From Corynebacterium mastitidis DSM 44356 (lineage in GTDB: Bacteria > Actinomycetota > Actinomycetes > Mycobacteriales > Mycobacteriaceae): a stretch of 64,000 nt of DNA. The notes below the pieces were generated by a model. The model did no database searches. It worked only from the letters and a program-made list of their open reading frames with translations, and was not told where the DNA came from. Positions 1 to 10,692 of this stretch are shown piece by piece. The position numbers and the translations under genes are program-made. Numbering within the stretch: the stretch's first letter is position 1; each line of letters opens with the position of its first letter. The DNA lies in contig NZ_AQXB01000003.1 of assembly GCF_000375365.1 (NCBI RefSeq), positions 124,001 through 188,000 of the forward strand. Reading direction: 5' to 3'.

Positions 1-343
<343 letters not shown>

Positions 344-454
344 GGGGATAGTGTAGTGGCCTGCGGGGAGGGGGAGGAAAAAATTAACCCCGAGCGACCT
401 GCGCCGGTGTGCGGCCGGGCCGGGCGCGAGGAACTAGCGGTACCCTCGGGAAAC

Positions 455-1849
455 ATGGAACGCATGGCCGGGGTAGACGAGGCGATCGCCCGCCTGGTGG
501 AGCTGTACGACGCCGCCACGGCGCGGGCAGCGGACATCTTCGCGTCGGGGGACTACGAGGCGTACCGGGAGGTGACCTACCCGCGCCTGGAGGTGGAGGT
601 CACGCGGTGGCGGCCCATCGACCGCCGCGCCCCCTTCGGCTACGTGGACGAGGCCGGGCGCTACGGCGCGGAGTTCACCAAGCCCCGCCTGCTGCGCGGA
701 TACCTACGGGAACAGCTCACCCGGCTGGTGGGCAACTACCCCTGCGAGATCTCCGTGGGCCCCTCCCGCACGCGCATCCCGCCCGAGTACATCCGGGGCC
801 TGGAAAACGTGGACGAGGCGCGCCGGGCGGGCGACCTCGGGGACGCGGTGCCCCGGCCCTCCCTGGACGAGGTGGACGACGGGATCGTGGATGGCCACTG
901 GGAGGCCTTTCACGGGCCGGTCAAGCCGCTGTTCCACTTTGGCCCGCAGCGCTGCGACATCGCCTGCGCGCGCATCGAGCACTACACCGGAATCCCGGTG
1001 GACACGCTGCAAAAGTACATCCTGTTTACCAACTACCCCATGCACACCAGCGAGTTCGTGGACTTCGGGCTGCGGGAACTAGGCCGGGAGGGCTCGCGCT
1101 ACACCGAGCTGGTGCTGCCCAGCGGGCAGCGCGCCACCGGCGGCGAGGAGCGGGTGGATAAGACCGCCACCAGCCAGATGCCCCGCTACGACCTGTGCAC
1201 GCCCGGCGGCGACGGCATCAGCATCATCAACATCGGCGTGGGCCCCTCCAACGCCAAGACCATCACCGACTGCCTGGCGGTGCTGCGCCCTGAGGCCTGG
1301 ATCATGATCGGCCACTGCGCCGGGCTGGACGGCCGCATGCGCATGGGCGACCTCATCCTGGGCAACGCCTACCAGCGCGAGGATCACGTGATGGACGGGC
1401 GCATCCGCCGCGACGTCCCCATCCCCGCCGTCCCGGAGATCCAGCGCGCCCTGGAATCCAGCGTGGACGCCGTGTACGGCCAGGATCATTCCCTCATGCG
1501 CACCGGCACCGTGCTCTCCACCGACGACCGCAACTGGGAGTGGCACACCGCCCGCGAGCTGTGGGAATGGCTGCGCGACTCCACCGCCGTGGCCGTGGAC
1601 ATGGAATCGTGCACGCTGGCGGCCAACGGCTACCGCTACCGGGTGCCCTACGGCACGCTGCTGAGCGTCTCGGATCTTCCGCTGCACGCGGTGCCCAAGC
1701 TGCCCGCGCAGGCGCAGGCCTTCTACTCCTCCTCCAAGGAGGCGCACGTGATGTGCGCGGTGCGGGCGATGGAGTACCTGGCGCAGGACCCGGAGCGGCT
1801 GCGCACCCGCAAGCTGCGGCGCGCCATCGGGGAGGTGCCGTTTAGGTAG
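455..1849 (+). CDS. amn: AMP nucleosidase
   Basis: AMP nucleosidase hydrolyses AMP to adenine and ribose 5-phosphate in the cytosol and helps set the adenylate pool. The protein is 464 residues, close to the roughly 480 of the E. coli enzyme. The N-terminal part is the family-specific domain. The C-terminal half has the nucleoside-phosphorylase-like fold, including the stretch IINIGVGPSNAKTITDCL near residue 255, MIGHCAGL and the late AVDMESCTLAANGYRYRVP segment expected for the nucleoside pocket. The open frame extends further upstream, but that extension is compositionally unlike the family. I chose the ATG at 455; the ATG at 464 is possible. It converges with the antitoxin-like gene, with only 3 bases between stops. 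Confidence 0.93.
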   Translation: MERMAGVDEAIARLVELYDAATARAADIFASGDYEAYREVTYPRLEVEVTRWRPIDRRAPFGYVDEAGRYGAEFTKPRLLRGYLREQLTRLVGNYPCEISVGPSRTRIPPEYIRGLENVDEARRAGDLGDAVPRPSLDEVDDGIVDGHWEAFHGPVKPLFHFGPQRCDIACARIEHYTGIPVDTLQKYILFTNYPMHTSEFVDFGLRELGREGSRYTELVLPSGQRATGGEERVDKTATSQMPRYDLCTPGGDGISIINIGVGPSNAKTITDCLAVLRPEAWIMIGHCAGLDGRMRMGDLILGNAYQREDHVMDGRIRRDVPIPAVPEIQRALESSVDAVYGQDHSLMRTGTVLSTDDRNWEWHTARELWEWLRDSTAVAVDMESCTLAANGYRYRVPYGTLLSVSDLPLHAVPKLPAQAQAFYSSSKEAHVMCAVRAMEYLAQDPERLRTRKLRRAIGEVPFR

Positions 1850-1852
1850 GCG

Positions 1853-2161
1853 CTAGGCGGCGTCGTTTTTGGCGATGTGATATCCCGCCTGGTCGAGGGC
1901 CGTGTGCAGGGCGCTGACGAGGGTGGCGTCGAGGGCGTTCGGGGTCAGCGAGCCGAGCAGGAGGCTCCGGGCAAAGGACGAGGGGGGCTGCTGGCCTGCG
2001 GCCTGCGTGAGACGCAGGAACTCCTCCTCGGAGAGGCGGATCTGGAGGGTCCTATTCCTGGAGGTGCCGGGGCGGGAAATAACGGTATCCGCTCGGGCGG
2101 CGGCACCTGATTCCACCTGCGGGGTTTCCTCGATGGCCTGCTGCAGCTTGGGGGGGATCAT
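1853..2161 (-). CDS. Ribbon-helix-helix-like antitoxin candidate
   Basis: This is a 102-residue protein. Its centre (about residues 41-70) reads as a basic strand plus two helices, TLQIRLSEEEFLRLTQAAG followed by SFARSLLLG, a pattern common in RHH antitoxins and MobC-like DNA-binding proteins. The start codon overlaps the stop of the upstream toxin-like gene by 4 bases, so the two are translationally coupled in the toxin-first order. I infer that it binds the neighbouring toxin and represses the shared promoter. The family assignment rests on pattern only, and a plain small regulator remains possible. Confidence 0.55.
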   Translation of the reverse strand: MIPPKLQQAIEETPQVESGAAARADTVISRPGTSRNRTLQIRLSEEEFLRLTQAAGQQPPSSFARSLLLGSLTPNALDATLVSALHTALDQAGYHIAKNDAA

Positions 2162-2430
2162 GGGTCTTCCTCTCGGTAGCGGGCTTGATCGCGCGGGTTG
2201 GAGCGCCAGCAGTTGACCCCGTAGACCGCGCCGTCCTCGGTGACGGTGATGACGGTAAGGATGGCGTTGGCCCCGGCGGAAAAGCCGATGGTGCGGTCGC
2301 TCACCCCGCTGAGGCTCGCGGGATCGGGGCTGTACGTGACGGCGCGGGGATCGGCCAGCGCCTCGTTGGCCTCCGCGACGGTGACGCCGTGCTTGGCTAT
2401 GTAACCGGAGCGATAGGACCAATCGACCAC
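2158..2430 (-). CDS. BrnT-like toxin candidate
   Basis: This protein of about 90 residues starts [20 protein letters not shown] and ends in [15 protein letters not shown]. The 'KHGV...EA' opening and the terminal arginine-rich S/N-x-R-x-x-x-RY tail resemble BrnT-type RNase toxins. The central part has the alternating hydrophobic strands expected of that small fold. The GTG at 2430 is preferred because a TACAGT -10 element ends 7 bases upstream, which would give a leaderless message. The open frame continues further 5' without support. It overlaps the RHH-like gene by 4 bases. RNase activity is inference from the family, and sequence similarity is only partial. Confidence 0.5.
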
Positions 2431-2546
2431 ACGACTCACTGTACTACGTGCGTATTGCGCGGGGCGGAAGCCAAGGGCTCGCGCCGGTCGGCGCCGCTGC
2501 GCGCAGGGAAACGCCACCCCCTACACTGGCGTGGGAAGGAGGAACT

Positions 2547-3320
2547 ATGACTCAGAACACCATCACCGAGGAGCGCCGCGGCCGCGTGGCGCTCATTACG
2601 CTCAACCGCCCCACGGCGCTCAACGCTCTCAACGCGGAGCTCATGGGGGAGGTGACGGAGGCGGTGACCCGCCTGGACGCCAGCCCGGAGGTCGGCGCGA
2701 TCGTCCTCACGGGCTCCGCCAAGGCCTTTGCCGCCGGGGCGGACATCAAGGAGATGGCGGAGAAGGGCGCCACGGAGATGTACAACGCCGATTGGTTCGG
2801 CGGCTGGGACGCCCTGACCCGGGCCCGCACCCCCATCATCGCGGCGGTCTCCGGCTACGCCCTGGGCGGGGGCTGCGAGCTGGCCATGATGTGCGATCTC
2901 ATCATCGCCGCCGAGGGTGCGCGCTTCGGTCAGCCGGAGATCAACCTGGGCATCCTGCCGGGCATGGGCGGTTCCCAGCGGCTCGTTCGCGCGGTGGGCA
3001 AGGCCAAGGCGATGGAGATGTGCCTGACCGGGCGCATGATGGACGCCCGGGAGGCGGAGCGCTCCGGCCTGGTGGCCCGCGTGGTGCCGGACGATTCCCT
3101 GCTGGAGGAGGCCCTGGAGACGGCCCGGGTGATCGCCTCCAAGTCCAAGGTGGCGTCCACGATGGTCAAGGAGGCCGTGAACGCGGCCTTCGAGGCGAAC
3201 CTGTCCCAGGGGCTGCTCTTCGAGCGCCGCCTGGTGCACTCGGTCTTTGCCTCGGAGGATCAGAAGGAGGGCATGGCGGCCTTCGTGGACAAGCGCGAGC
3301 CGGAGTTTCGCCACCGCTAG
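2547..3320 (+). CDS. Enoyl-CoA hydratase/isomerase family protein (crotonase)
   Basis: This is a 257-residue crotonase that would hydrate trans-2-enoyl-CoA to 3-hydroxyacyl-CoA. The sequence shows the oxyanion-hole segment [12 protein letters not shown], the block [15 protein letters not shown] with the first catalytic Glu, and [17 protein letters not shown] with the second. Both acid residues expected of true hydratases are therefore present. Length is typical of the short EchA type. The start at 2547 has an AAGGAGG ribosome binding site about 6 bases upstream. It stands alone, and the other beta-oxidation-like genes of this window are about 28 kb away. Substrate chain length cannot be read from sequence. 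Confidence 0.92.
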
Positions 3321-3478
3321 GGGCACCGGTCACCGCCGCCGGTGGTTGCAGGGCGTCGATAGGGGCGGGAGAGGGCCCGGCGGCGATGGTCGGGTGACGC
3401 CTCCCGGACCGCCCTGTGTATCGTGTACCACATTGCACGACGGGGTGCCGAGCCACCCACACAACCGGAAGGCTCCTG

Positions 3479-5080
3479 ATGTCCACGGAAACCACCGCAG
3501 AAACCACGGCAGAACCACGCACCGCATTGGGTCGATGGGGGGATCGCTTCCTCGGCACCATCGAGGCCGTGGGCAACAAGCTGCCCACGCCCTTTTTGCT
3601 CTTTCTTATTCTCTTTCTCCTCACCGCCGTGGCCTCCTCGCTCATGGCGTGGTCGGGTGCCGCGGTGGAGGTGCCCGGATCGGGGGAGACCCTCAGCATT
3701 AAGGGTCTGTTTACCAACGAGGGCCTGGTGTGGTTCACGGAGAACATCGGGGAGAACTACCTGGGCTTTCCGCCGCTGGTGACCGTGCTGCCCATCATGC
3801 TGGCGGTGGGCATCGCGGAGCGCTCCGGGATGCTCGCGGCGCTGATCCGCAAGCTCTTTGGCTCCGCGAACAAGACGGTGCTGCCCTACGCCGTGGGCGT
3901 GACGGGCGTGACGGCCTCGGTGATGGCGGACGCCGCCTTCGTGGTGGTGCCGCCGTTGGCCGCGATGGTGTTCAAGGCCGCCGGGCGGCACCCCGTGGCG
4001 GGCCTGCTCGGCGGCTTTGCCGCCGTGGGGGCGGGGTACTCCACCTCCCTGGTGCCCAGCAGCCTCGACGCCCTCTTCGCGGGGATCACCAACGCAGTGA
4101 TGGAGGGCCTGCCCGGCCTGGCGGCCCAGGAGGTCAATCCGGTATCCAACTATTACTTCAACATCGCGTCCGCGATCCTGCTGGGCGTGATCGCGGGATT
4201 CCTCATCGACCGCGTGCTGGAACCGCGCATGGCGCGCCAGAACGTGCCCACCGAGCAGCGGGCGCTGGACGACGATCCCCAGGACCCCGGGCAGGAGGAC
4301 CTCTCAGCGGAGCTGGACCCCCGGGAGTGGCTGGCGCTGAAGGTGTCCCTGTGGGGCACGCTGCTGGTGACCGCCGCGGCGCTCGTGGCCGTGATGCTGC
4401 CGGGCTCCCCGTGGCGCAACGAGAGCGGCGGCTTCCTGCCGCAGTCGCCGCTGCTGAACTCCATCGTGTTCCTGGTCATGCTCTTCTTCTTTGTCATGGG
4501 CGTCTCCTACGGCGTGGTGGCGGGCACGATCCGCAGCGTGGACGACGCGGTGGACATGATGACGGAGTCCTTCAAGGGGATGCTGGAGTTCCTGGTGCTG
4601 GCCTTCATCCTGGGGCAGTTCGTGGCCCTGTTCAACTGGACCGGCATCGGCACCTGGACGGCGGTCAAGGGCGCGGCGGGCCTGGAGTCCGTGGGGCTGA
4701 CGGGCTTTGCCGCCGTGCTGGCCTTCATCGTTCTGGCGAGCGTTTTGAACCTCCTCATCATCTCCGGCTCCGCGATGTGGACGCTCATGGCGGCGGTGTT
4801 CGTGCCGATGTTCGCCCTGCTGGGCTACGAGCCGGGCTTTGTGCAGGCGGCGTTCCGCGTGGGAGACTCCGCCACCCAGATCATCACCCCGCTCAACCCG
4901 TACATGATCGTGATCCTGGGCATGCTGCGCCGCTACGAGCCGCGGGCGGGGCTGGGCACCCTGATGTCCCGCATGTTCGTCTTTGTTGTTCCCTTCGGGC
5001 TGACCTGGGTGCTGCTGCTGGCGCTCTGGTTCTACGCGGATCTCCCGCTGGGGCCGGGCGCGGGGATATTCCTGGGATAG
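3479..5080 (+). CDS. AbgT family transporter (p-aminobenzoyl-glutamate type)
   Basis: This 533-residue polytopic membrane protein belongs to the AbgT family. Members import p-aminobenzoyl-glutamate, a folate breakdown product, or in the MtrF type export sulfonamides. After a short Thr/Glu-rich cytoplasmic tail come many hydrophobic helices, with conserved hairpin-type segments such as VMADAAFVVVPPLAAMVF, TSLVPSSLDALFAGIT and GDSATQIITPLNPYMIVIL, the last matching a typical AbgT C-terminal block. A GGAAGG site precedes the ATG at 3479. The next gene on the strand is an M20 amidohydrolase related to aminobenzoyl-glutamate hydrolases, which supports an uptake-and-cleavage pair. A drug-efflux role is the alternative. 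Confidence 0.9.
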   Translation: MSTETTAETTAEPRTALGRWGDRFLGTIEAVGNKLPTPFLLFLILFLLTAVASSLMAWSGAAVEVPGSGETLSIKGLFTNEGLVWFTENIGENYLGFPPLVTVLPIMLAVGIAERSGMLAALIRKLFGSANKTVLPYAVGVTGVTASVMADAAFVVVPPLAAMVFKAAGRHPVAGLLGGFAAVGAGYSTSLVPSSLDALFAGITNAVMEGLPGLAAQEVNPVSNYYFNIASAILLGVIAGFLIDRVLEPRMARQNVPTEQRALDDDPQDPGQEDLSAELDPREWLALKVSLWGTLLVTAAALVAVMLPGSPWRNESGGFLPQSPLLNSIVFLVMLFFFVMGVSYGVVAGTIRSVDDAVDMMTESFKGMLEFLVLAFILGQFVALFNWTGIGTWTAVKGAAGLESVGLTGFAAVLAFIVLASVLNLLIISGSAMWTLMAAVFVPMFALLGYEPGFVQAAFRVGDSATQIITPLNPYMIVILGMLRRYEPRAGLGTLMSRMFVFVVPFGLTWVLLLALWFYADLPLGPGAGIFLG

Positions 5081-5100
5081 CGCCGCGCGGCCTTGAGGGG

Positions 5101-5116
5101 CGTTTCACGTGAAACA
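5101..5116. other. parS-like ParB binding site
   Basis: The sequence CGTTTCACGTGAAACA matches the 16-base bacterial parS consensus TGTTTCACGTGAAACA at 15 of 16 positions, with a perfect 14-base palindrome at 5102-5115. It lies in the intergenic space after the AbgT gene. Chromosomal parS sites cluster around the origin in corynebacteria, so it would act in ParB-dependent origin segregation. Confidence 0.85.
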
Positions 5117-5223
5117 TCGCGGCGCGCACGTGGCCGCGCCCGCGCAGCGCGTCGGCAGAAAAACATAGCGCCGACCCGCCGCCCCCTCTACCCTGGGTGA
5201 CGCCGACACACGAAAGGACGCCC

Positions 5224-6551
5224 ATGCCTGCCCAGCCCTCCACCGCCTACCTCGACGCGATGAGGGAGGGGATCGAGCGCCGCGCCCGGCGGGCCCGCGC
5301 GCAGGCCCCGGCGCCGGAGCGGGGGAGGCGTACCCGGGCCAGCGCCGCGCCTGGGACCGGGCGGCCCGGGCCGGGGAGGAGCTACGCGATGACCTCCGGA
5401 ACCTGGCCCTTGACCTGCACGATCACCCGGAGGAGGCGTTCGAGGAACGTCACGCCGCGCGGAGCATTGCCGCGCTGCTGCGCGCGCACGGCCACGAGGT
5501 CGAGGTGGGGGTGGGCGGGCTGGACACCGCCCTGCGCGCCGAGCACCGCGCGCCGGGCTTCGACCCCCAGCGCGATCCCACCGTGGCGATCCTCGCGGAG
5601 TACGACGCCCTGCCGGGCATCGGCCACGGCTGCGGGCACAACATCATCGCGGCGGCGGGGGTGGGGGCGTTCCTGGCGGCGTCGAGAAGCGCGGGCGCGG
5701 CGTGCGGCAGGATCGTGCTGCTGGGCACCCCCGCCGAGGAGGGGCACACGGGCAAGGAGTACCTGATCCGCGCGGGGGCGTTCGAGGGTATCGACGCCGC
5801 CATGATGGTGCACCCCTTTTCCTTCGACCTCGCGGAGCACGCCTGGGTGGGGCGGCGCACCCTGACCGCCACGTTCCGCGGCGTGGCCGCCCACGCCTCC
5901 TCCGAGCCCTTCATGGGGCGCAACGCCCTCGACGCCGCCACCCTGGCCTACCAGGGCTTCGGCCTGCTGCGCCAGCAGATGCCGCCCTCGGACCGCCTGC
6001 ACGCCGTGATCACCGAGGGCGGCCAGCGCCCCTCCGTGATCCCGGACACCGCCACCATGACCATCTACGTGCGCTCGCTCATGGCCCGCACCCTGAGCGA
6101 CCTCTCCGGGCGCATCGATGCCGTGCTCGACGGCGCCGCGCTCATGGCCGGGGTGGAGGTGAGCAAGGAGTGGGACGGCCACCCCGCCAGCCTGCCGGTG
6201 CGCAACAACCGCGCGTTGGCGCAGCGCTGGGCCGCCACCCAGGAGCGGCGCGGGCGGCGCGCCCTGCCCGGCGGGGTGGTGCCGGACACCCTGGCGGCCT
6301 CCACGGACTTCGGCAACGTCTCCCACCTCGTGCCCGGCATCCACCCGATGGTGAAGATCGCCCCGGAGGGTGTGGCGCTGCACACCCGGGCCTTTGCGGA
6401 ATACGCGCGCTCGGAGGAGGCGGTGGACGCGGCCGTGGACTCCGCGATCGGCCTGGCCCAGGTGGCCCTGGACGCGCTCGGGGAACCCGCGTTGCTGGAA
6501 GCCGCGCGGGAGGAGTTCGAGGCCGCCGGTGGGGTGCTGCGGGCGCAGTGA
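5224..6551 (+). pseudogene. M20 family amidohydrolase (aminobenzoyl-glutamate hydrolase-like), frameshifted
   Basis: The gene starts at the ATG at 5224, behind a GAAAGGA site, and reads about 33 residues (MPAQPSTAYLDAMREGIERR...). The family sequence then continues in another frame: AYPGQRRAWDRAAR, then ELRDDLRNLALDLHDHPEEAFEE. The switch falls at the run of five G at 5321-5325, where a sixth G would restore one 442-residue frame. The rest is a good M20 enzyme: metal-site and catalytic blocks ILAEYDALPGIGHGCGHN and GTPAEEGHTGKEYL, then a dimerisation domain and a C-terminal H segment. It follows the abgT-like gene, so hydrolysis of aminobenzoyl-glutamate or similar N-acyl amino acids is the likely role. 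It may be a true pseudogene, a phase-variable tract or a sequencing error. Confidence 0.8.
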
Positions 6552-6656
6552 CGTGTCGAAATATCGGCGGAAAATCGACACGTCGCGGGGATATGTCGAT
6601 GCGATCGACACGTGGGGCGGATATGTCGATTTTTCGGGAAAATTTCGACATATCGG
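6551..6656. promoter_or_regulatory. TCGACA/TGTCGA dyad array upstream of fic
   Basis: Two 27-base units at 6574-6600 and 6604-6630 each carry ATCGACA and TGTCGAT as an inverted repeat with a 13-base spacer, and the units are 30 bases apart. Related outer half-sites GTGTCGAAATATCGG (6553-6567) and TTCGACATATCGG (6644-6656) flank them. The array ends 27 bases before the fic start codon, so it is a likely operator cluster. Confidence 0.7.
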
Positions 6657-6682
6657 TTTTCGAGGGAGGGTATCCTCGGTGC

Positions 6683-7774
6683 ATGACCGCCGCCGCCTTT
6701 GATCCAAGCACTCCCTACAACGAGCTGCCTCCGTTGCCGCCGGGCGTTCCCCTGGAAACGGTTCCCGTGCTCAAGGCGGTGATCGGAGCCCGCAGTCGGC
6801 TCGCGGCCCTGGACAAGGCCTGCGAGCTTATCCCGAACCCGCAGATTATTACCACCACTATTCCGTTGCGGGAGGCCCAGGCGTCCTCGGAGATCGAGAA
6901 CATCGTGACCACCAACGACGAGTTGTTCCGCGCGGCGTGGCGGGTGGAGGCCATTCAGACCCCGGCCACGAAGGAGGCGCTGAGGTATAACGACGCCCTC
7001 TTCCTGGGCCAGCGACGCCTCCGGGAGCGTGGGGGTGTATCCGCAAAGTTGGCCGCGGAAATCTGCTCCGTTCTTCATGGAACCACCGTGGGGGTGCGGC
7101 CCTTTCCCGGCACCTACATCGGTGATCCGTCCTCCAAGCGGCACGTGTACACGCCCCCGGAGGGCAAGGAGGTGATCGAGCGGCACCTCTCGGCGTGGGA
7201 GCGCTTTCTCTATTCGGAGCATGGCCTCGATCCTTTGGTGCTGATGGCGGTGTCTCATTACCAGTTCGAGGCCATCCATCCATTCCCGGACGGCAACGGA
7301 CGCACCGGGCGTATCCTCAACATCCTCTTTCTCATGCAGGAAAAGGTGTTGAGGCTCCCCGTCCTTTACCTCTCCGGCTACATCGTGCGCAACAAGTCTG
7401 AGTATTATCGCCGCCTGCGCCGGGTGACCACGCATGGGGAATGGGAGCCGTGGCTGCTCTACATGGTTAATGCGGTGGAGTCCGCGGCGAGGGAGGCCAC
7501 GGAGATGATCGATCGCCTGCGGCTCATTCAGGAGGAACTCGCCGGACGCATGCGCGAGGAGGGTAGGGTGGCCGCGCCGGAAAAGCTGGCGGAGATCTTC
7601 ATGCGTAACCCCTACGTGCGCATCGGGGATGTGGTGGACGAGGGCCTGGCCAAGCGGCAGACGGCCTCCGCGTGGTTAGCCAGCCTCGTGGAGCTGGGAT
7701 TGCTGCGTGAGGTCAGGGTGGGCAGGGAGAAGATCTTTGTGAACCGCGCGGCCTTGGCGGCGCTCACGGCCTAA
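6683..7774 (+). CDS. Fic family protein, class II (N-terminal inhibitory helix)
   Basis: This 363-residue Fic-domain protein would transfer AMP, or another nucleotide-derived moiety, to hydroxyl side chains of a target protein. The active loop HPFPDGNGRTGR at residues 199-210 matches HxFx(D/E)GNGRxxR in full. An inhibitory motif SSEIEN at residues 68-73 fits (S/T)xxxE(G/N) placed N-terminal to the core, which defines class II. The C-terminal 60 residues look like a winged-helix domain (VGDVVDEGLAKRQTASAWL then LGLLREV), common in stand-alone Fic proteins and probably DNA-binding. The dyad array just upstream fits autoregulation by that domain. There is no separate antitoxin gene. The target is unknown. 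Confidence 0.92.
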   Translation: MTAAAFDPSTPYNELPPLPPGVPLETVPVLKAVIGARSRLAALDKACELIPNPQIITTTIPLREAQASSEIENIVTTNDELFRAAWRVEAIQTPATKEALRYNDALFLGQRRLRERGGVSAKLAAEICSVLHGTTVGVRPFPGTYIGDPSSKRHVYTPPEGKEVIERHLSAWERFLYSEHGLDPLVLMAVSHYQFEAIHPFPDGNGRTGRILNILFLMQEKVLRLPVLYLSGYIVRNKSEYYRRLRRVTTHGEWEPWLLYMVNAVESAAREATEMIDRLRLIQEELAGRMREEGRVAAPEKLAEIFMRNPYVRIGDVVDEGLAKRQTASAWLASLVELGLLREVRVGREKIFVNRAALAALTA

Positions 7775-7806
7775 GACTCCTGAGCCTCCTGTGCGTATTC
7801 CGCCCC

Positions 7807-8364
7807 TTAGCGCCGCCCCCGCCGCCCGCTCACGGTCTTGTCCCCCGGTATCCAGAACCGCAGCGGGGCCTCGGCGTTCTTGGTGATCCCGATGCGCGGC
7901 CCGCGCACCCACTCCGGCTCCTCCGTGCGCGGTCGTAACACAAAGTCCGGCCCGGTCACCGGGGCGCCGTTGTCCGCCAGGTCGAGGCCCAGCGCCGAGC
8001 CGAGGTTGCCGGGCCCCTGCGCCAGGCGGTGAAAGGGGACGTCGCCTCGGCGCTGCCAGGCGATCTCCTCGCCGTCGATGACCTCCCCCGCGCGCAGCAG
8101 GCAGCCCTGCCCGACGCCCTCGGGGGCGCACACGATGTTGCCCGCCCGGTGAATCCCGTAGGAGAGGTACACGTACATGTGTCCGCCGGGGCCGAACATC
8201 GCCCGGTTGCGTGGGGTTATGCCCCGGTAGGTGTGGGCGGCGGCGTCCTCGGCGCCGAGGTAGGCCTCCACCTCGGTGAGCCGCACGGTCACCCCGGCGT
8301 GGGTGAGGGCGCAGCCGAGCAGTTGGGGTGCCACCGCGTCGGCGGTGGCGGAGAAGTCGATCAC
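7807..8364 (-). CDS. DNA-3-methyladenine glycosylase (AAG/MPG family)
   Basis: This base-excision repair glycosylase removes 3-methyladenine, hypoxanthine and similar alkylated or deaminated purines. The 185-residue protein has the family's LLGCALTH opening, the active-site block LTEVEAYLG with the catalytic Glu, then YRGITPRNRAMFGPGGHMYVYLSYGIH and the late QGPGNLGSALGL segment, all in order. The start is GTG at 8364. The ribosome-binding position is occupied by AAGGGGTGCCACC, an arm of the dispersed repeat family seen later in the window. The stop codon falls in another half-arm (CCCCTTAGCGCC at 7804-7815). Genes on both sides are not obviously linked to repair. Confidence 0.92.
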   Translation of the reverse strand: MIDFSATADAVAPQLLGCALTHAGVTVRLTEVEAYLGAEDAAAHTYRGITPRNRAMFGPGGHMYVYLSYGIHRAGNIVCAPEGVGQGCLLRAGEVIDGEEIAWQRRGDVPFHRLAQGPGNLGSALGLDLADNGAPVTGPDFVLRPRTEEPEWVRGPRIGITKNAEAPLRFWIPGDKTVSGRRGRR

Positions 8365-8449
8365 GGTGGCACCCCTTCGGGTCGTCGGGGCCGCGCGGGC
8401 CCGTGGAGCGGCGCCCCGGCTGCACGGGGCGCGGCAGTGATAAGCGGGG

Positions 8450-8854
8450 TCAGCGGCGCGTGCGCAGCGCCCCGGCGAGCGGGCCGAGCAGCCAGTTCAC
8501 CAGTCCCATCACCAGGGCGCCAAGGAAGGCCGCGCGGAACCCGCTCACGCTCAGGCCCAGCCCGAGGGCGGAGGAGACGGAGCCCGCCAGGAGGAACACG
8601 GCGGCGTTGATGAACAGCGCGAACAGGCCCAGGGTGAGGATGGTCAGCGGGAGGCCCAGCAGCCGCAGCGCCGGGCGCACCGTCATGTTGAGCACCACGA
8701 TCACGGCGGCGGAGCCGAGGAAGGAGACCCAGCGCTGCTCGGGATGGGCGCCGTAGACGGACAGCCCCGCGACTACCTCGGTGACCACCCACAGCGCCAC
8801 CGCCGTGCCCGCCGAACGGACGAGGAAGTTCCAGAGAGCGCCCACGCTATGCAC
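8450..8854 (-). CDS. Phage holin family (4-TM, YvlD-like) membrane protein
   Basis: This is a 134-residue integral membrane protein with four predicted hydrophobic helices and short loops. The pattern VVLNMTVRPALRLLGLPLTILTLGLFALFINA is characteristic of the DUF360/YvlD family that databases label phage holin family protein. The name does not imply a phage origin, and no phage genes are nearby. Its start overlaps the end of the upstream acetyltransferase gene by 8 bases, so the two are probably one transcript. Function is unknown. Homologues are widespread in actinobacteria as single-copy chromosomal genes. Confidence 0.8.
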   Translation of the reverse strand: MHSVGALWNFLVRSAGTAVALWVVTEVVAGLSVYGAHPEQRWVSFLGSAAVIVVLNMTVRPALRLLGLPLTILTLGLFALFINAAVFLLAGSVSSALGLGLSVSGFRAAFLGALVMGLVNWLLGPLAGALRTRR

Positions 8855-9365
8855 CGTCCCCTCGGTGCGCCAGGGGCGGGATCACGCCGCTGGGGACGCG
8901 GTCGCCGCGCAGCGGCAGGGCGAGGACCTCGACCTCGGGGCCGGTGCCCCGCTCGATGTCGAGCCGGATGCCGGGCGCGGGGCGGAAGCCGAACCTGCGG
9001 TAGAACTCCGGGTTGCCCAGGGCCGCCACGCCGCTCGTCCCGGCGTCGCGCAGCTCCTCGACGGCCCGGGTAACAAGCCCGGTGCCCACGCCACGGCGGC
9101 GCGCCGGGGGCTCCACCACCAGGGGGCCGAGCACGCTCCAGCCTGCGGCGTCCCCGAGGCGCACCCGCGTGGCGCCGAGGAATCCCACGATGTCCGTCTC
9201 CGCGATGGCCACGAGGCTTAGGGCGAGCCGGTCGGCGTCGCGCAGCTCTTCCACCAGCTCCTGCTCGTTGTGCCAGGAGTGGTAGTCGTCCGCGAAGGCG
9301 CGGGTGATGAGGGCTCGGATGGCGGTGATGTCCGCCTCCGTTTCCCGGCGGATGGTCAGTTCCAT
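8847..9365 (-). CDS. GNAT family N-acetyltransferase
   Basis: This is a 172-residue acetyl-CoA-dependent acetyltransferase of the GNAT fold. The opening IRRETEADITAIRALITRAF, the core VEPPARRRGVGTGLVTRAVEELR with the R/Q-x-x-G-x-G/A acetyl-CoA loop, and FYRRFGFRPAPGI are in the usual order. This resembles the YhbS-like branch of predicted N-acetyltransferases. The ATG at 9365 is preferred over the one at 9374 because a TAGGAT -10 element ends 7 bases before it. It overlaps the downstream membrane-protein gene. The acceptor substrate cannot be told from sequence. Confidence 0.85.
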   Translation of the reverse strand: MELTIRRETEADITAIRALITRAFADDYHSWHNEQELVEELRDADRLALSLVAIAETDIVGFLGATRVRLGDAAGWSVLGPLVVEPPARRRGVGTGLVTRAVEELRDAGTSGVAALGNPEFYRRFGFRPAPGIRLDIERGTGPEVEVLALPLRGDRVPSGVIPPLAHRGDGA

Positions 9366-9390
9366 GCCGCTCATCCTACAAAGCCCGCCG

Positions 9391-10692
9391 CTAGGCGGCG
9401 GCGGGGGCGCGCCAGGGCTGCTCGTCGAGGATGCCCGCGCGCTTGGACACCACGGCGGCCACCAGGGCCTGGCCGGTGACGTTGACGGCGGTGCGGCCCA
9501 TGTCGATGATCGGCTCGATGGCCAGCAGCAGGCCCACGCCCGCCAGGGGCAGGCCCAGGGTGGACAGCGTGAGGGTGAGCATCACCGTGGCCCCGGTGGT
9601 GCCCGCCGTGGCCGCCGAGCCGATCACGGAGACGAACACGATGAGCAGGTAGTGGGTGAGGTCGAGGTGCACCCCGTAGAACTGGGCCACGAAGATCGCG
9701 GCCACCGCCGGGTACACGGCGGCGCAGCCGTCCATCTTGGTGGTGGCCCCCAGCGGGATGGCAAAGGAGGCGTACTCGCGCGGCACGCCGAGGGATTCCT
9801 CGGAGACGCGCTGGGTCACCGGCATCACGCCCATGGAGGAGCGGGTGACAAAGCCCAGGGAGGTCACCGGCCATACCCGGCGGTAGAAGCCCACCACGGG
9901 CAGCCCGGTCAGGCGCAGCACCGCCGGGTAGACCACGCCGAGCACCAGGGCCAGGCCCACGTAGATGGCGATGACGAACTTGCCCAGGGAGCCCAGGGCG
10001 TCCCAGCCGTAGCTGGCCACGGCGTTGCCGATGAGCGCGGCGGTGCCGAGGGGCGCCAGGCGGATGATCCACCACAGCACCTCCTGGATGACCTTGAGGA
10101 AGGACTCCGTGAAGGCCAGGAAGGGCTCGGCGGCCTTGCCCGCGCGCACGGCGGCCACGCCGAGGGCGAGGGAGAGCACCAGGATCTGGAGCACGTTGAA
10201 GCTCAGCGAGACGCCCCCGGAGGAGCCCTCGGCGGCGGAGAGGCCGAGGAAGTTCACCGGCACGATGGACTCGAGGAAGCCCAGCCAGCTTCCGGTGCGC
10301 GAGGGGTCGGCCGCCGTGGCGGGGTCGATCGCGGTGCCCTCGCCGGGCCGGAGCACCAGGGCCACGAGGATGCCCACCAGCACGGAGAGGAACGCCGTGA
10401 TGGCGAACCACAGCAGAGTGGAGGCGGCCAGCCGGGCGGCGTTGGTGACCTTGCGCAGGTTGGCCACGGAGGTGACCACGGCGGCAAAGACCAGTGGGGG
10501 GATGAGCAGCTTGAGCAGCTGCACGTAGGTGGAGCCCACGGCGTCCAGGGTGGCGGTGAGCCAGTTGCCCTCGGCCATCGCGCGGGCGCTCAAGCCCAAA
10601 ACCAGGCCGAGGATAAGGCCCGCTACCACCTGGGCGCCAAAGTTGGTCATCCAGGCCGGGAGCCGGCGTGTGGAGGAGGGGGAGGAGGTCAT
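9391..10692 (-). CDS. Dicarboxylate/amino acid:cation symporter (DAACS family)
   Basis: This 433-residue membrane symporter of the GltP/DctA family takes up glutamate, aspartate or C4-dicarboxylates with protons or sodium. Visible family signatures are the early LLKLLIPPLVFAAVVTSVANL segment, the serine-rich-type hairpin RSSMGVMPVT, the IPLGATTKMDGCA block equivalent to the conserved NMDGT site, and the C-terminal IDMGRTAVNVTGQAL helix that binds substrate. The ATG at 10692 follows an AAAAGGTG site; upstream in-frame codons lack one. It is a single gene. Choice between amino acid and dicarboxylate cannot be made from sequence alone. Confidence 0.92.
   Translation of the reverse strand: MTSSPSSTRRLPAWMTNFGAQVVAGLILGLVLGLSARAMAEGNWLTATLDAVGSTYVQLLKLLIPPLVFAAVVTSVANLRKVTNAARLAASTLLWFAITAFLSVLVGILVALVLRPGEGTAIDPATAADPSRTGSWLGFLESIVPVNFLGLSAAEGSSGGVSLSFNVLQILVLSLALGVAAVRAGKAAEPFLAFTESFLKVIQEVLWWIIRLAPLGTAALIGNAVASYGWDALGSLGKFVIAIYVGLALVLGVVYPAVLRLTGLPVVGFYRRVWPVTSLGFVTRSSMGVMPVTQRVSEESLGVPREYASFAIPLGATTKMDGCAAVYPAVAAIFVAQFYGVHLDLTHYLLIVFVSVIGSAATAGTTGATVMLTLTLSTLGLPLAGVGLLLAIEPIIDMGRTAVNVTGQALVAAVVSKRAGILDEQPWRAPAAA

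What the first reader, a model, noticed from the sequence alone, without database searches (positions are those of the whole stretch)
6551..6656. Fic gene preceded by a regular dyad array
Two 27-base units 30 bases apart (about three helical turns) each contain ATCGACA and TGTCGAT in inverted order with a 13-base spacer, flanked by diverged half-sites. The Fic protein ends in a probable winged helix. A self-regulated AMPylator with a multi-dimer operator is a testable unit with no separate antitoxin.
Basis: partly seen in the sequence, partly recalled or inferred. Interest (0 to 1): 0.52.

Follow-up and report, generated by a model that had tools for sequence, protein, structure and literature searches.

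The report
Fic toxin's self-binding promoter array
A bacterial anti-phage enzyme of the SoFic kind carries, in front of its gene, a precisely spaced set of DNA sites that its own DNA-binding tail very probably grips to control its production; the same spacing recurs in distant bacteria and the letters of the sites change together with that tail.

Summary
Six exact TGTCGA half-sites (6554-6650) stand at start-to-start distances 21-19-11-19-21, a palindrome centred on about 6602: two 27-bp dyads TGTCGA-N15-TCGACA around a 17-bp dyad. The gene (6683-7774) encodes a SoFic-like class II Fic protein with a C-terminal winged helix. In the genus, 27 of 29 full-length orthologues carry the 27-bp dyad upstream. 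Of 143 de-duplicated SoFic-like loci from many phyla, 113 have half-sites in this ruler, against 1 of 429 shuffled controls; an E. coli SoFic locus has it too. Half-site letters change with the recognition helix (four of the five best covarying of 354 columns are residues 321-326; an S-R-Q-T helix meets TGTTAR in two distant clades). In most Corynebacterium loci half-sites coincide with the -35 and -10. Best explanation: the Fic protein binds the array through its winged helix and represses its own, probably leaderless, promoter. Binding and repression are inferred, not shown. An autorepressing Fic-HTH protein is known (CccR, Yersinia), so this is a new variant of a known kind; I found the shared ruler and helix-operator code in none of the paper listings I saw.

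The parts
6554..6580 (.). operator dyad 1: TGTCGA (6554-6559, forward half-site) - N15 - TCGACA (6575-6580, reverse half-site)
   Evidence: same 27-bp dyad upstream of 27 of 29 genus orthologues with at most 2 mismatches in the 12 outer letters
6594..6610 (.). central dyad TGTCGA (6594-6599) - N5 - TCGACA (6605-6610), exact TGTCGATNNNATCGACA, only perfect copy in the genome
   Evidence: the 11-bp spacing recurs 32 times in 109 loci
6624..6650 (.). operator dyad 2: TGTCGA (6624-6629) - N15 - TCGACA (6645-6650); last half-site lies at -38 to -33 from the start codon
6554..6650 (.). whole array, half-sites at 21-19-11-19-21, palindromic about position 6602
   Evidence: spacing string; inverted pair I1, 81% complementary
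6671..6676 (+). probable -10 element TATCCT starting 12 nt before the start codon; leaderless transcript inferred
   Evidence: same offset in 27 of 27 genus loci, start codons chosen with a preference for such a hexamer; the consensus promoter scan found none
6683..7774 (+). fic gene, SoFic-like class II Fic protein, 363 aa
6884..6901 (+). codons 68-73, inhibitory motif SSEIEN (S/TxxxE-G/N)
   Evidence: motif definition recalled
7277..7312 (+). codons 199-210, Fic catalytic motif HPFPDGNGRTGR
7580..7747 (+). codons 300-355, C-terminal winged helix (SoFic-like_C); recognition helix 325-337
   Evidence: Pfam 300-355; predicted secondary structure

Best explanation
The array is the operator of the fic gene and the Fic protein is its own regulator. 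SoFic-like dimers bind pairs of TGTCGA half-sites with the N-terminal part of the recognition helix of their C-terminal winged helix (around residues 321-330). The main unit is the 27-bp dyad (half-sites 21 bp apart, two helical turns, same face); several dimers fill the 21-19-11-19-21 ruler side by side. Bound protein blocks the promoter, because half-sites lie on or next to the -35, the -10 and, in part of the relatives, the start codon of a leaderless message. The toxic AMP-transferring enzyme thus keeps its own level low without a separate repressor. Shown here: array, conservation, ruler, covariation, positions relative to the start codon. Inferred: binding, dimers per site, cooperativity, repression, leaderless start. 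Recalled or from papers: AMPylation and the anti-phage role of SoFic.
For: Conservation with the gene: 27 of 29 genus orthologues; half-sites 18.3 per kb upstream against 0.66 per kb in flanks, at least 2 half-sites in 83 of 109 loci against 2.0 expected from dinucleotide shuffles; ruler array in 113 of 143 loci against 1 of 429 mononucleotide-shuffled controls. Fixed ruler: 21 (77 times), 19 (67), 11 (32) in 109 loci, same in E. coli strain KW21. Helix-operator code: mostly [KQRHG]RQT with TGTCGA; SRPTA with TGTAAA/TGGAAA; SRQTA with TGTTAR; RQAA(S/A)R with TGTCGC/T; [ST]R[IL]TAT with TGTATA; SRATAT with TGAGAA. Of 354 protein columns the five best by mutual information include 322, 321, 324, 326; in the smaller set 324, 322, 321, 318 lead 356 columns. 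Repeats on a tree built without the winged helix: SRQT/TGTTAR twice, TGTCGY at least twice, and L083 (RQTASR, TGTCGA) among RQAASR/TGTCGY relatives. Exact sites of the own genome only at fic. In 27 genus loci a half-site (one mismatch or a listed variant allowed) starts at -35 in 20, at -16 in 18 and at -5 in 12. Precedent: CccR, a Fic-HTH protein, binds palindromes in its own promoter and represses it (PMC9755527).
Against: No binding data. The covariation p value (7.6e-6) ignores shared ancestry; with independent pairs only 6 pairs were usable and the sign test is not significant (3.5 for, 0.1 against, p 0.125). Among pairs under 55% identical and not both TGTCGA, same recognition residues gave the same half-site in 7 of 113, different residues in 2 of 1776: right direction, low absolute rate. 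Exceptions to the code: AxRQTAS helices also with TGTTTA or TGTTGA (L077, L081, L089); HRET, KRQQ and KRQAASV helices with TGTCGA; an SRLTAT helix with a best hexamer TGCCGC (L198); RQAASR members without a site (L072, L112). By mutual information divided by column entropy in the larger set, near-invariant columns lead and 326 is sixth. 30 of 143 loci have no array by my score, among them the four Xanthomonas loci; two genus orthologues lack a clear dyad (L032, L033). No sigma-70 consensus promoter was found; in the window the last half-site is at -38 and none lies on the -10.
Confidence: 0.87

Rival explanations
1. The Fic protein binds the array, but the point is not simple repression: it activates its promoter at low level, or DNA binding switches the enzyme itself between active and silent forms, so the array is a holding or sensing device as well as an operator.
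For: The ruler reaches over about 100 bp or more with nearly fixed spacing in distant phyla, more than a simple repressor needs; DNA binding induces (de)AMPylation in a related wHTH Fic enzyme, CbFic2 (PMC10628234, title and passages).
Against: Half-sites sit on the -35 and -10 in most of 27 genus loci, which fits blocking; in CccR, mutations that broke dimerisation and repression hardly changed toxicity (PMC9755527, section 10 part 1).
Confidence: 0.2
2. Another, unlinked transcription factor binds the array and the Fic winged helix has a different job.
For: N15 dyads with AT-rich cores exist without a recognisable SoFic gene nearby in G117, G142, G056, G033, G031 and G041.
Against: Half-site letters change with the Fic recognition helix; in the own genome the exact sites occur only at fic; the ruler accompanies the gene from Corynebacterium to E. 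coli. At least one orphan lies where a related species has fic.
Confidence: 0.05
3. The array is not an operator but a structured RNA, a recombination site or the end of a mobile element.
For: In 10 of 29 de-duplicated genus loci a second group of half-sites follows the stop codon; a single array without fic marks the putA locus in G117; two copies of one array core enclose a CRISPR-Cas locus in G033.
Against: The window's half-sites lie upstream of the inferred start of the message; the half-site changes letters with the protein's recognition helix, which an RNA or recombination site would not need; 19 of 29 genus loci, the window included, have fewer than two half-sites downstream.
Confidence: 0.04

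Closest known systems
SoFic of Shewanella oneidensis (SO_4266; PDB 3eqx, 3zcn, 3zec) and E. coli Sofic, an anti-phage Fic protein
   Same: Full-length homology (phmmer E 4.4e-100 to 9vjc), same three domains, same fold (Z 45.0, rmsd 2.0 over 357 residues to 3zcn), PADLOC SoFic model E 1.6e-103; an E. coli relative, full-length match to 9vjc at 732 bits, has the same operator ruler.
   Different: Below NCBI's equivalog cut-off for SoFic (431 of 550 bits). DNA binding of SoFic not demonstrated as of 2023 (PMC10628234, passage). 9vjc is labelled only 'Protein adenylyltransferase'; that it is E. coli Sofic is my inference. Titles of 9vjc, 9tb0, 9tc4, 9tch and 9tcl were not visible, so newer DNA work cannot be excluded.
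CccR of Yersinia pseudotuberculosis, Fic-HTH toxin that represses its own gene (PMC9755527)
   Same: Fic domain plus C-terminal HTH; palindromic operator at its own promoter; no separate repressor.
   Different: CccR protects one 46-nt site, AGATAATCAT-N26-ATGATAATCT, half-sites 36 bp apart; here several TGTCGA half-sites at 21, 19 and 11 bp. CccR is described as a T6SS effector; nothing of that was looked for here.
Coxiella CbFic2 (PMC10628234)
   Same: Fic protein with C-terminal winged helix that binds DNA.
   Different: Bound DNA of random sequence with high affinity and modifies histone H3 (title and passages); no operator in the passages seen.
Type II toxin-antitoxin operators (antitoxin binds inverted repeats in its own promoter; recalled)
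   Same: Autoregulation of a toxin gene through repeated inverted sites.
   Different: Here the DNA-binding part is fused to the toxin itself; no adjacent antitoxin gene recognised.

Membership tests
SoFic-like Fic proteins | Fic_N + Fic + SoFic-like_C domains above Pfam cut-offs | tested here: met
   77.2, 52.9 and 62.8 bits against cut-offs 26.7, 24 and 27
SoFic-like Fic proteins | NCBIfam equivalog NF046030 at or above its cut-off | tested here: not met
   431.1 bits, cut-off 550; so 'SoFic-like', not filed as the SoFic equivalog
SoFic-like Fic proteins | Catalytic motif HxFx(D/E)GNGRxxR | tested here: met
   HPFPDGNGRTGR, residues 199-210, 11 of 12 positions invariant in 14 aligned relatives; motif definition recalled
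SoFic-like Fic proteins | Class II inhibitory motif (S/T)xxxE(G/N) N-terminal to the Fic motif | tested here: met
   SSEIEN, residues 68-73; S68, E72, N73 invariant in 14 relatives
SoFic-like Fic proteins | AMP transfer, toxicity, anti-phage defence | not testable with these tools
   sequence only; stated for E. coli Sofic in PMC12249575 (abstract in the listing, section 5)
Autorepressing Fic-HTH proteins (CccR type) | C-terminal HTH on a Fic protein | tested here: met
Autorepressing Fic-HTH proteins (CccR type) | Inverted-repeat sites at its own promoter conserved with the gene | tested here: met
Autorepressing Fic-HTH proteins (CccR type) | CccR's operator layout, 10-bp half-sites with a 26-bp spacer | tested here: not met
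   half-sites here are 21, 19 and 11 bp apart
Autorepressing Fic-HTH proteins (CccR type) | Measured binding and derepression on deletion | not testable with these tools
   needs bench work
Type II toxin-antitoxin module | Adjacent antitoxin gene | tested here: inconclusive
   the fic stop ends at 7774 and the Mpg gene occupies 7807-8364 on the other strand; ORFs of 25 aa or more in 7600-8300 include only a 31-aa and a 64-aa one on the fic strand after the gene, the latter antisense to Mpg; the AS1 sequence was not at hand

The most novel reading that the evidence does not exclude
The ruler is kept over phyla because SoFic proteins assemble on it into one defined nucleoprotein body that is itself the regulated form of the enzyme: operator-bound SoFic is a held, silent store, and events that strip or destroy operator DNA, such as phage takeover of the host chromosome, release it to AMPylate its targets. 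In part of Corynebacterium the same arrays also flank the gene on both sides and serve as homologous repeats through which the defence gene is lost or gained.
Probability: 0.12. Interest if true: 0.85.

Novelty: new variant of a known kind. Interest (0 to 1): 0.6.

Why it matters
SoFic-like proteins occur in many bacterial phyla and SoFic is an anti-phage defence whose control is described as elusive (abstract of PMC12249575 in the listing). A conserved operator that can be read off the sequence, with a readable link between recognition helix and half-site, makes that control directly testable in many bacteria, predicts binding sites for uncharacterised members, and says where the level of a self-toxic immune enzyme may be set. 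It also suggests that the enzyme's DNA-binding tail, for which no DNA binding had been shown in SoFic by 2023 (PMC10628234), works at its own promoter.

Tried and rejected
A regulon of many genes: not supported in the own genome (with 3 mismatches allowed, one search counted 71 matches on either strand against 10 of the reversed control, listed in part and not followed up). The N15 pattern alone is not specific: 68 of 151 genus genomes have at least one exact match, several with GC-rich cores (listing capped). First motif search by over-represented 8-mers gave mixed registers and was replaced by the spacing score. Promoter scan found nothing. Downstream-type arrays: one search used a pattern one base short and found 0 of 151; with a shorter pattern found 9 of 151. 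Phage records: 1 of 50,697 matched (E 7e-63, 37% identity), not followed up; plasmids: 210 records, not followed up. Literature: seven full-text searches; I saw only the listed rows (10-25 each of 20 to 10,202 papers), none of which, by title and start of abstract, is about a SoFic operator; one search matched 'fic' inside any word and was useless. The library lacks most subscription journals and all preprints. The structure list did not include the newest SoFic entries.

Rows dropped before counts: of the hits only the 30 with loci were used (own plus 29; of the 29, L021, L022 and L031 are near-copies of L017, L019 and L030); fragments in G062, G063 and G147 were left out. L039-L050 (about 30-35% identical, another Fic branch) were left out of the 109 and 143 sets. 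L172 (own), L173 (partial) and L174 (same as L097) were not used. De-duplication removed 5 of 114 and 6 of 149. In one search classes were assigned by a hand-written table from the spacing score. In one search, 12 loci below the score threshold received hand labels from dyads or sub-threshold scores seen, L164's label (best hexamer TGTCAG) was overridden to TTAR, and L198 (TGCCGC) was left unlabelled. In one search the hexamer was required to begin with TG, a register taken from the unrestricted run.

Full report
What is there. The window lies in a genome of a genus that is Corynebacterium, judged from four named loci (L051-L054) that are near-identical to unnamed genus loci. At 6683-7774 (+) a 363-residue protein is encoded with Fic_N, Fic and SoFic-like_C domains, the Fic motif HPFPDGNGRTGR and the class II inhibitory motif SSEIEN. 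Its predicted model (mean pLDDT 89.1) matches Shewanella SoFic over the full length (3zcn, Z 45.0, rmsd 2.0, 357 residues). It scores below NCBI's SoFic equivalog cut-off (431 of 550 bits), so I call it SoFic-like. Upstream is an M20 peptidase gene, downstream on the other strand (7807-8364) a methylpurine-DNA glycosylase gene.

The array. Exact half-sites: TGTCGA at 6554, 6594, 6624 (forward) and TCGACA at 6575, 6605, 6645 (reverse), start-to-start 21-19-11-19-21. The outer arms 6554-6580 and 6624-6650 are 81% complementary, so the whole array is a palindrome about 6602. In the 64 kb window no unrelated hexamer comes near in the spacing score (23; next unrelated 5). The exact 17-bp central dyad is unique in the genome, and both exact N15 dyads of the genome lie here.

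Conservation in the genus. Of 151 genus genomes, 88 have some match to the protein, many of them only to distant Fic proteins; 30, the own one included, gave full-length orthologues with loci. Of the 29 others, 25 have an exact TGTCGA-N15-TCGACA upstream, one has 1 mismatch (L014), one 2 (L023), one 3 (L033), and one none (L032); three of the 29 are near-copies of others.

Conservation beyond. With 80 named loci from many phyla, 109 de-duplicated loci hold 354 TGTCGA half-sites in 19.3 kb of upstream DNA, 18.3 per kb, against 0.66 per kb in the flanks; 83 of 109 have at least two, against 2.0 expected. Distances are almost discrete: 21 (77 times), 19 (67), 20 (15), 11 (32), and mainly 30, 40, 70 on one strand. 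With more loci, 113 of 143 have a ruler array for some hexamer, against 1 of 429 shuffles. With half-site variants allowed, the complete string 21-19-11-19-21 occurs in 7 of 87 TGTCGA/TGTTTA-type loci, the window among them. E. coli strain KW21, whose Fic protein matches PDB 9vjc over its full length (732 bits), has nine detected half-sites in the same ruler, TGTCGA and TGTTTA mixed, the last at -7 to -2, next to the start codon. At least 45 of 5,426 E. coli genomes have a related gene (probably a lower bound, since no match covered 80% of the query).

Helix-operator code. Half-sites found from spacing alone and then with a TG register fall into classes that follow the recognition helix: mostly [KQRHG]RQT with TGTCGA (85 loci); RQAA(S/A)R with TGTCGC/T (6); SRPTA with TGTAAA or TGGAAA (4), and once, SRPTAS, with TGTCAA; SRQTA with TGTTAG/TGTTAA (7), once TGTCAG; [ST]R[IL]TAT with TGTATA (3); SRATAT with TGAGAA (1); ERHAAS with TGGAAC (1). 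Mutual information between half-site and protein column puts 324, 322, 321 and 318 first of 356, and 322, 321, 324, 326 among the first five of 354 in the larger set (hypergeometric p 7.6e-6 for residues 318-331, which ignores shared ancestry). The predicted recognition helix is 325-337. On a FastTree tree from residues 1-298 only, TGTTAR/SRQT arises twice (Actinomycetota, and L194 from the class of the genome of L097), and TGTCGY at least twice, always with RQAA(S/A)R, with L083 (RQTASR, TGTCGA) beside RQAASR/TGTCGY relatives. Limits: only 6 independent pairs, p 0.125; pair test 7 of 113 against 2 of 1776; after normalising by column entropy the larger set is led by near-invariant columns and 326 is sixth; AxRQTAS helices also go with TGTTTA (L077, L081) and TGTTGA (L089); RQAAS with V or S after it keeps TGTCGA (L065, L066, L069, L074), as do HRET helices (L111, L116, L177, L180) and KRQQ (L024); L198 (SRLTAT) scored TGCCGC; L072 and L112 (RQAASR) have no site.

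Promoter. In 27 of 27 de-duplicated genus loci a TANNNT hexamer starts exactly 12 nt before the start codon. Start codons were chosen with a preference for such a hexamer within 11-16 nt, so the presence is partly by construction; the constant offset is not. Relative to these starts a reverse half-site (at most one mismatch) begins at -35 in 20 of 27, a forward one (TGTCGA or one of four listed variants) at -16 in 18, and a reverse one (at most one mismatch) at -5 in 12. The ruler's 19 and 11 thus coincide with -35 to -10 and -10 to start codon, and TCGACA itself resembles the -35 consensus TTGACA (recalled). In the window the last half-site is at -38 and the -10 is TATCCT (6671-6676). A consensus scan found no sigma-70 site. 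A leaderless message is my inference.

Mechanism. I commit to autorepression by the Fic protein through its winged helix, 0.87. Conservation and covariation tie operator to protein; position ties it to promoter blocking; CccR is an experimental precedent for a Fic-HTH protein (PMC9755527, passages and section 10 part 1). That the array's length and phasing serve more than repression stays open; CbFic2 shows that DNA can change Fic activity (PMC10628234, title and passages).

Known or new. PMC10628234 states that DNA binding of SoFic had not been demonstrated. PMC12249575 on E. coli Sofic has no occurrence of 'DNA-binding', 'winged' or 'autoregulat' in its main text. A 2026 AMPylation review mentions CccR and has no occurrence of SoFic (PMC12894286, passages). 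No row listed by the seven searches is, by title and abstract start, about an operator of SoFic. So: a new variant of a known kind, with the caveat of unseen journals and of SoFic structures too new for the structure library.

Side finding. In 10 of 29 de-duplicated genus loci two or more half-sites follow within 160 bases after the stop codon. At the putA / aldo-keto reductase locus G117 has one array and no fic, where G044 and, by partial matches, G046 have array-fic-array between homologues of the two genes; in G044 a further ORF on the other strand (L012 2699-3172, 157 aa) lies between the second array and the reductase gene, and in G117 the reductase ORF follows the array within about 110 bases, so the two loci differ by more than fic. 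In G033 two identical array cores 11.6 kb apart enclose Cas genes incl. Cas3, Cse1 and Cas1. The window's own fic has no exact half-site within 160 bases after its stop codon. Recombination between such repeats could delete the gene; not tested.

Noticed in passing
L008-L013, L015, L016, L018, L020 (Corynebacterium fic loci), within 160 bases after the stop codon: A second group of half-sites lies directly downstream of the gene, so fic is flanked by like-built arrays; in L015 the two copies are nearly identical over about 45 bases.
   Followed up: partly
L209:3725-3751 (G117), compare L012 and L015: A lone array without fic between putA and an aldo/keto reductase gene, where G044 has array-fic-array (and one further ORF) between homologues: an empty site or a deletion scar.
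   Followed up: partly
L205:3566-3592 and L205:15163-15189 (G033): Two identical array cores with like flanks enclose a CRISPR-Cas locus with Cas3, Cse1, CT1975-like and Cas1 genes; best fic-like tblastn hit there only E 0.013.
   Followed up: partly
L206, L207, L208, L210 (G041, G031, G142, G056): Further N15 dyads, mostly with AT-rich cores, and no fic-like tblastn hit better than E 0.1 within about 3.7 kb.
   Followed up: no
window 5224-6551: The M20 peptidase gene before fic seems frameshifted near 5310-5330: frame 5224 carries a plausible N-terminus, frame 5226 the continuation. Sequencing error or broken gene, not settled.
   Followed up: partly
L040, L042, L044-L050: In a more distant Fic branch (about 30-35% identity) 9 of 12 loci have a perfect 8+8 dyad of their own upstream, e.g. 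TTAGAATA-type twice in L042 and L046 (no control run); suggests autoregulation beyond SoFic.
   Followed up: no
plasmid hits: 210 plasmid records carry a SoFic-like gene (E limit 1e-60), 172 of them predicted conjugative, 160 from Salmonella; listed in part, not fetched.
   Followed up: no
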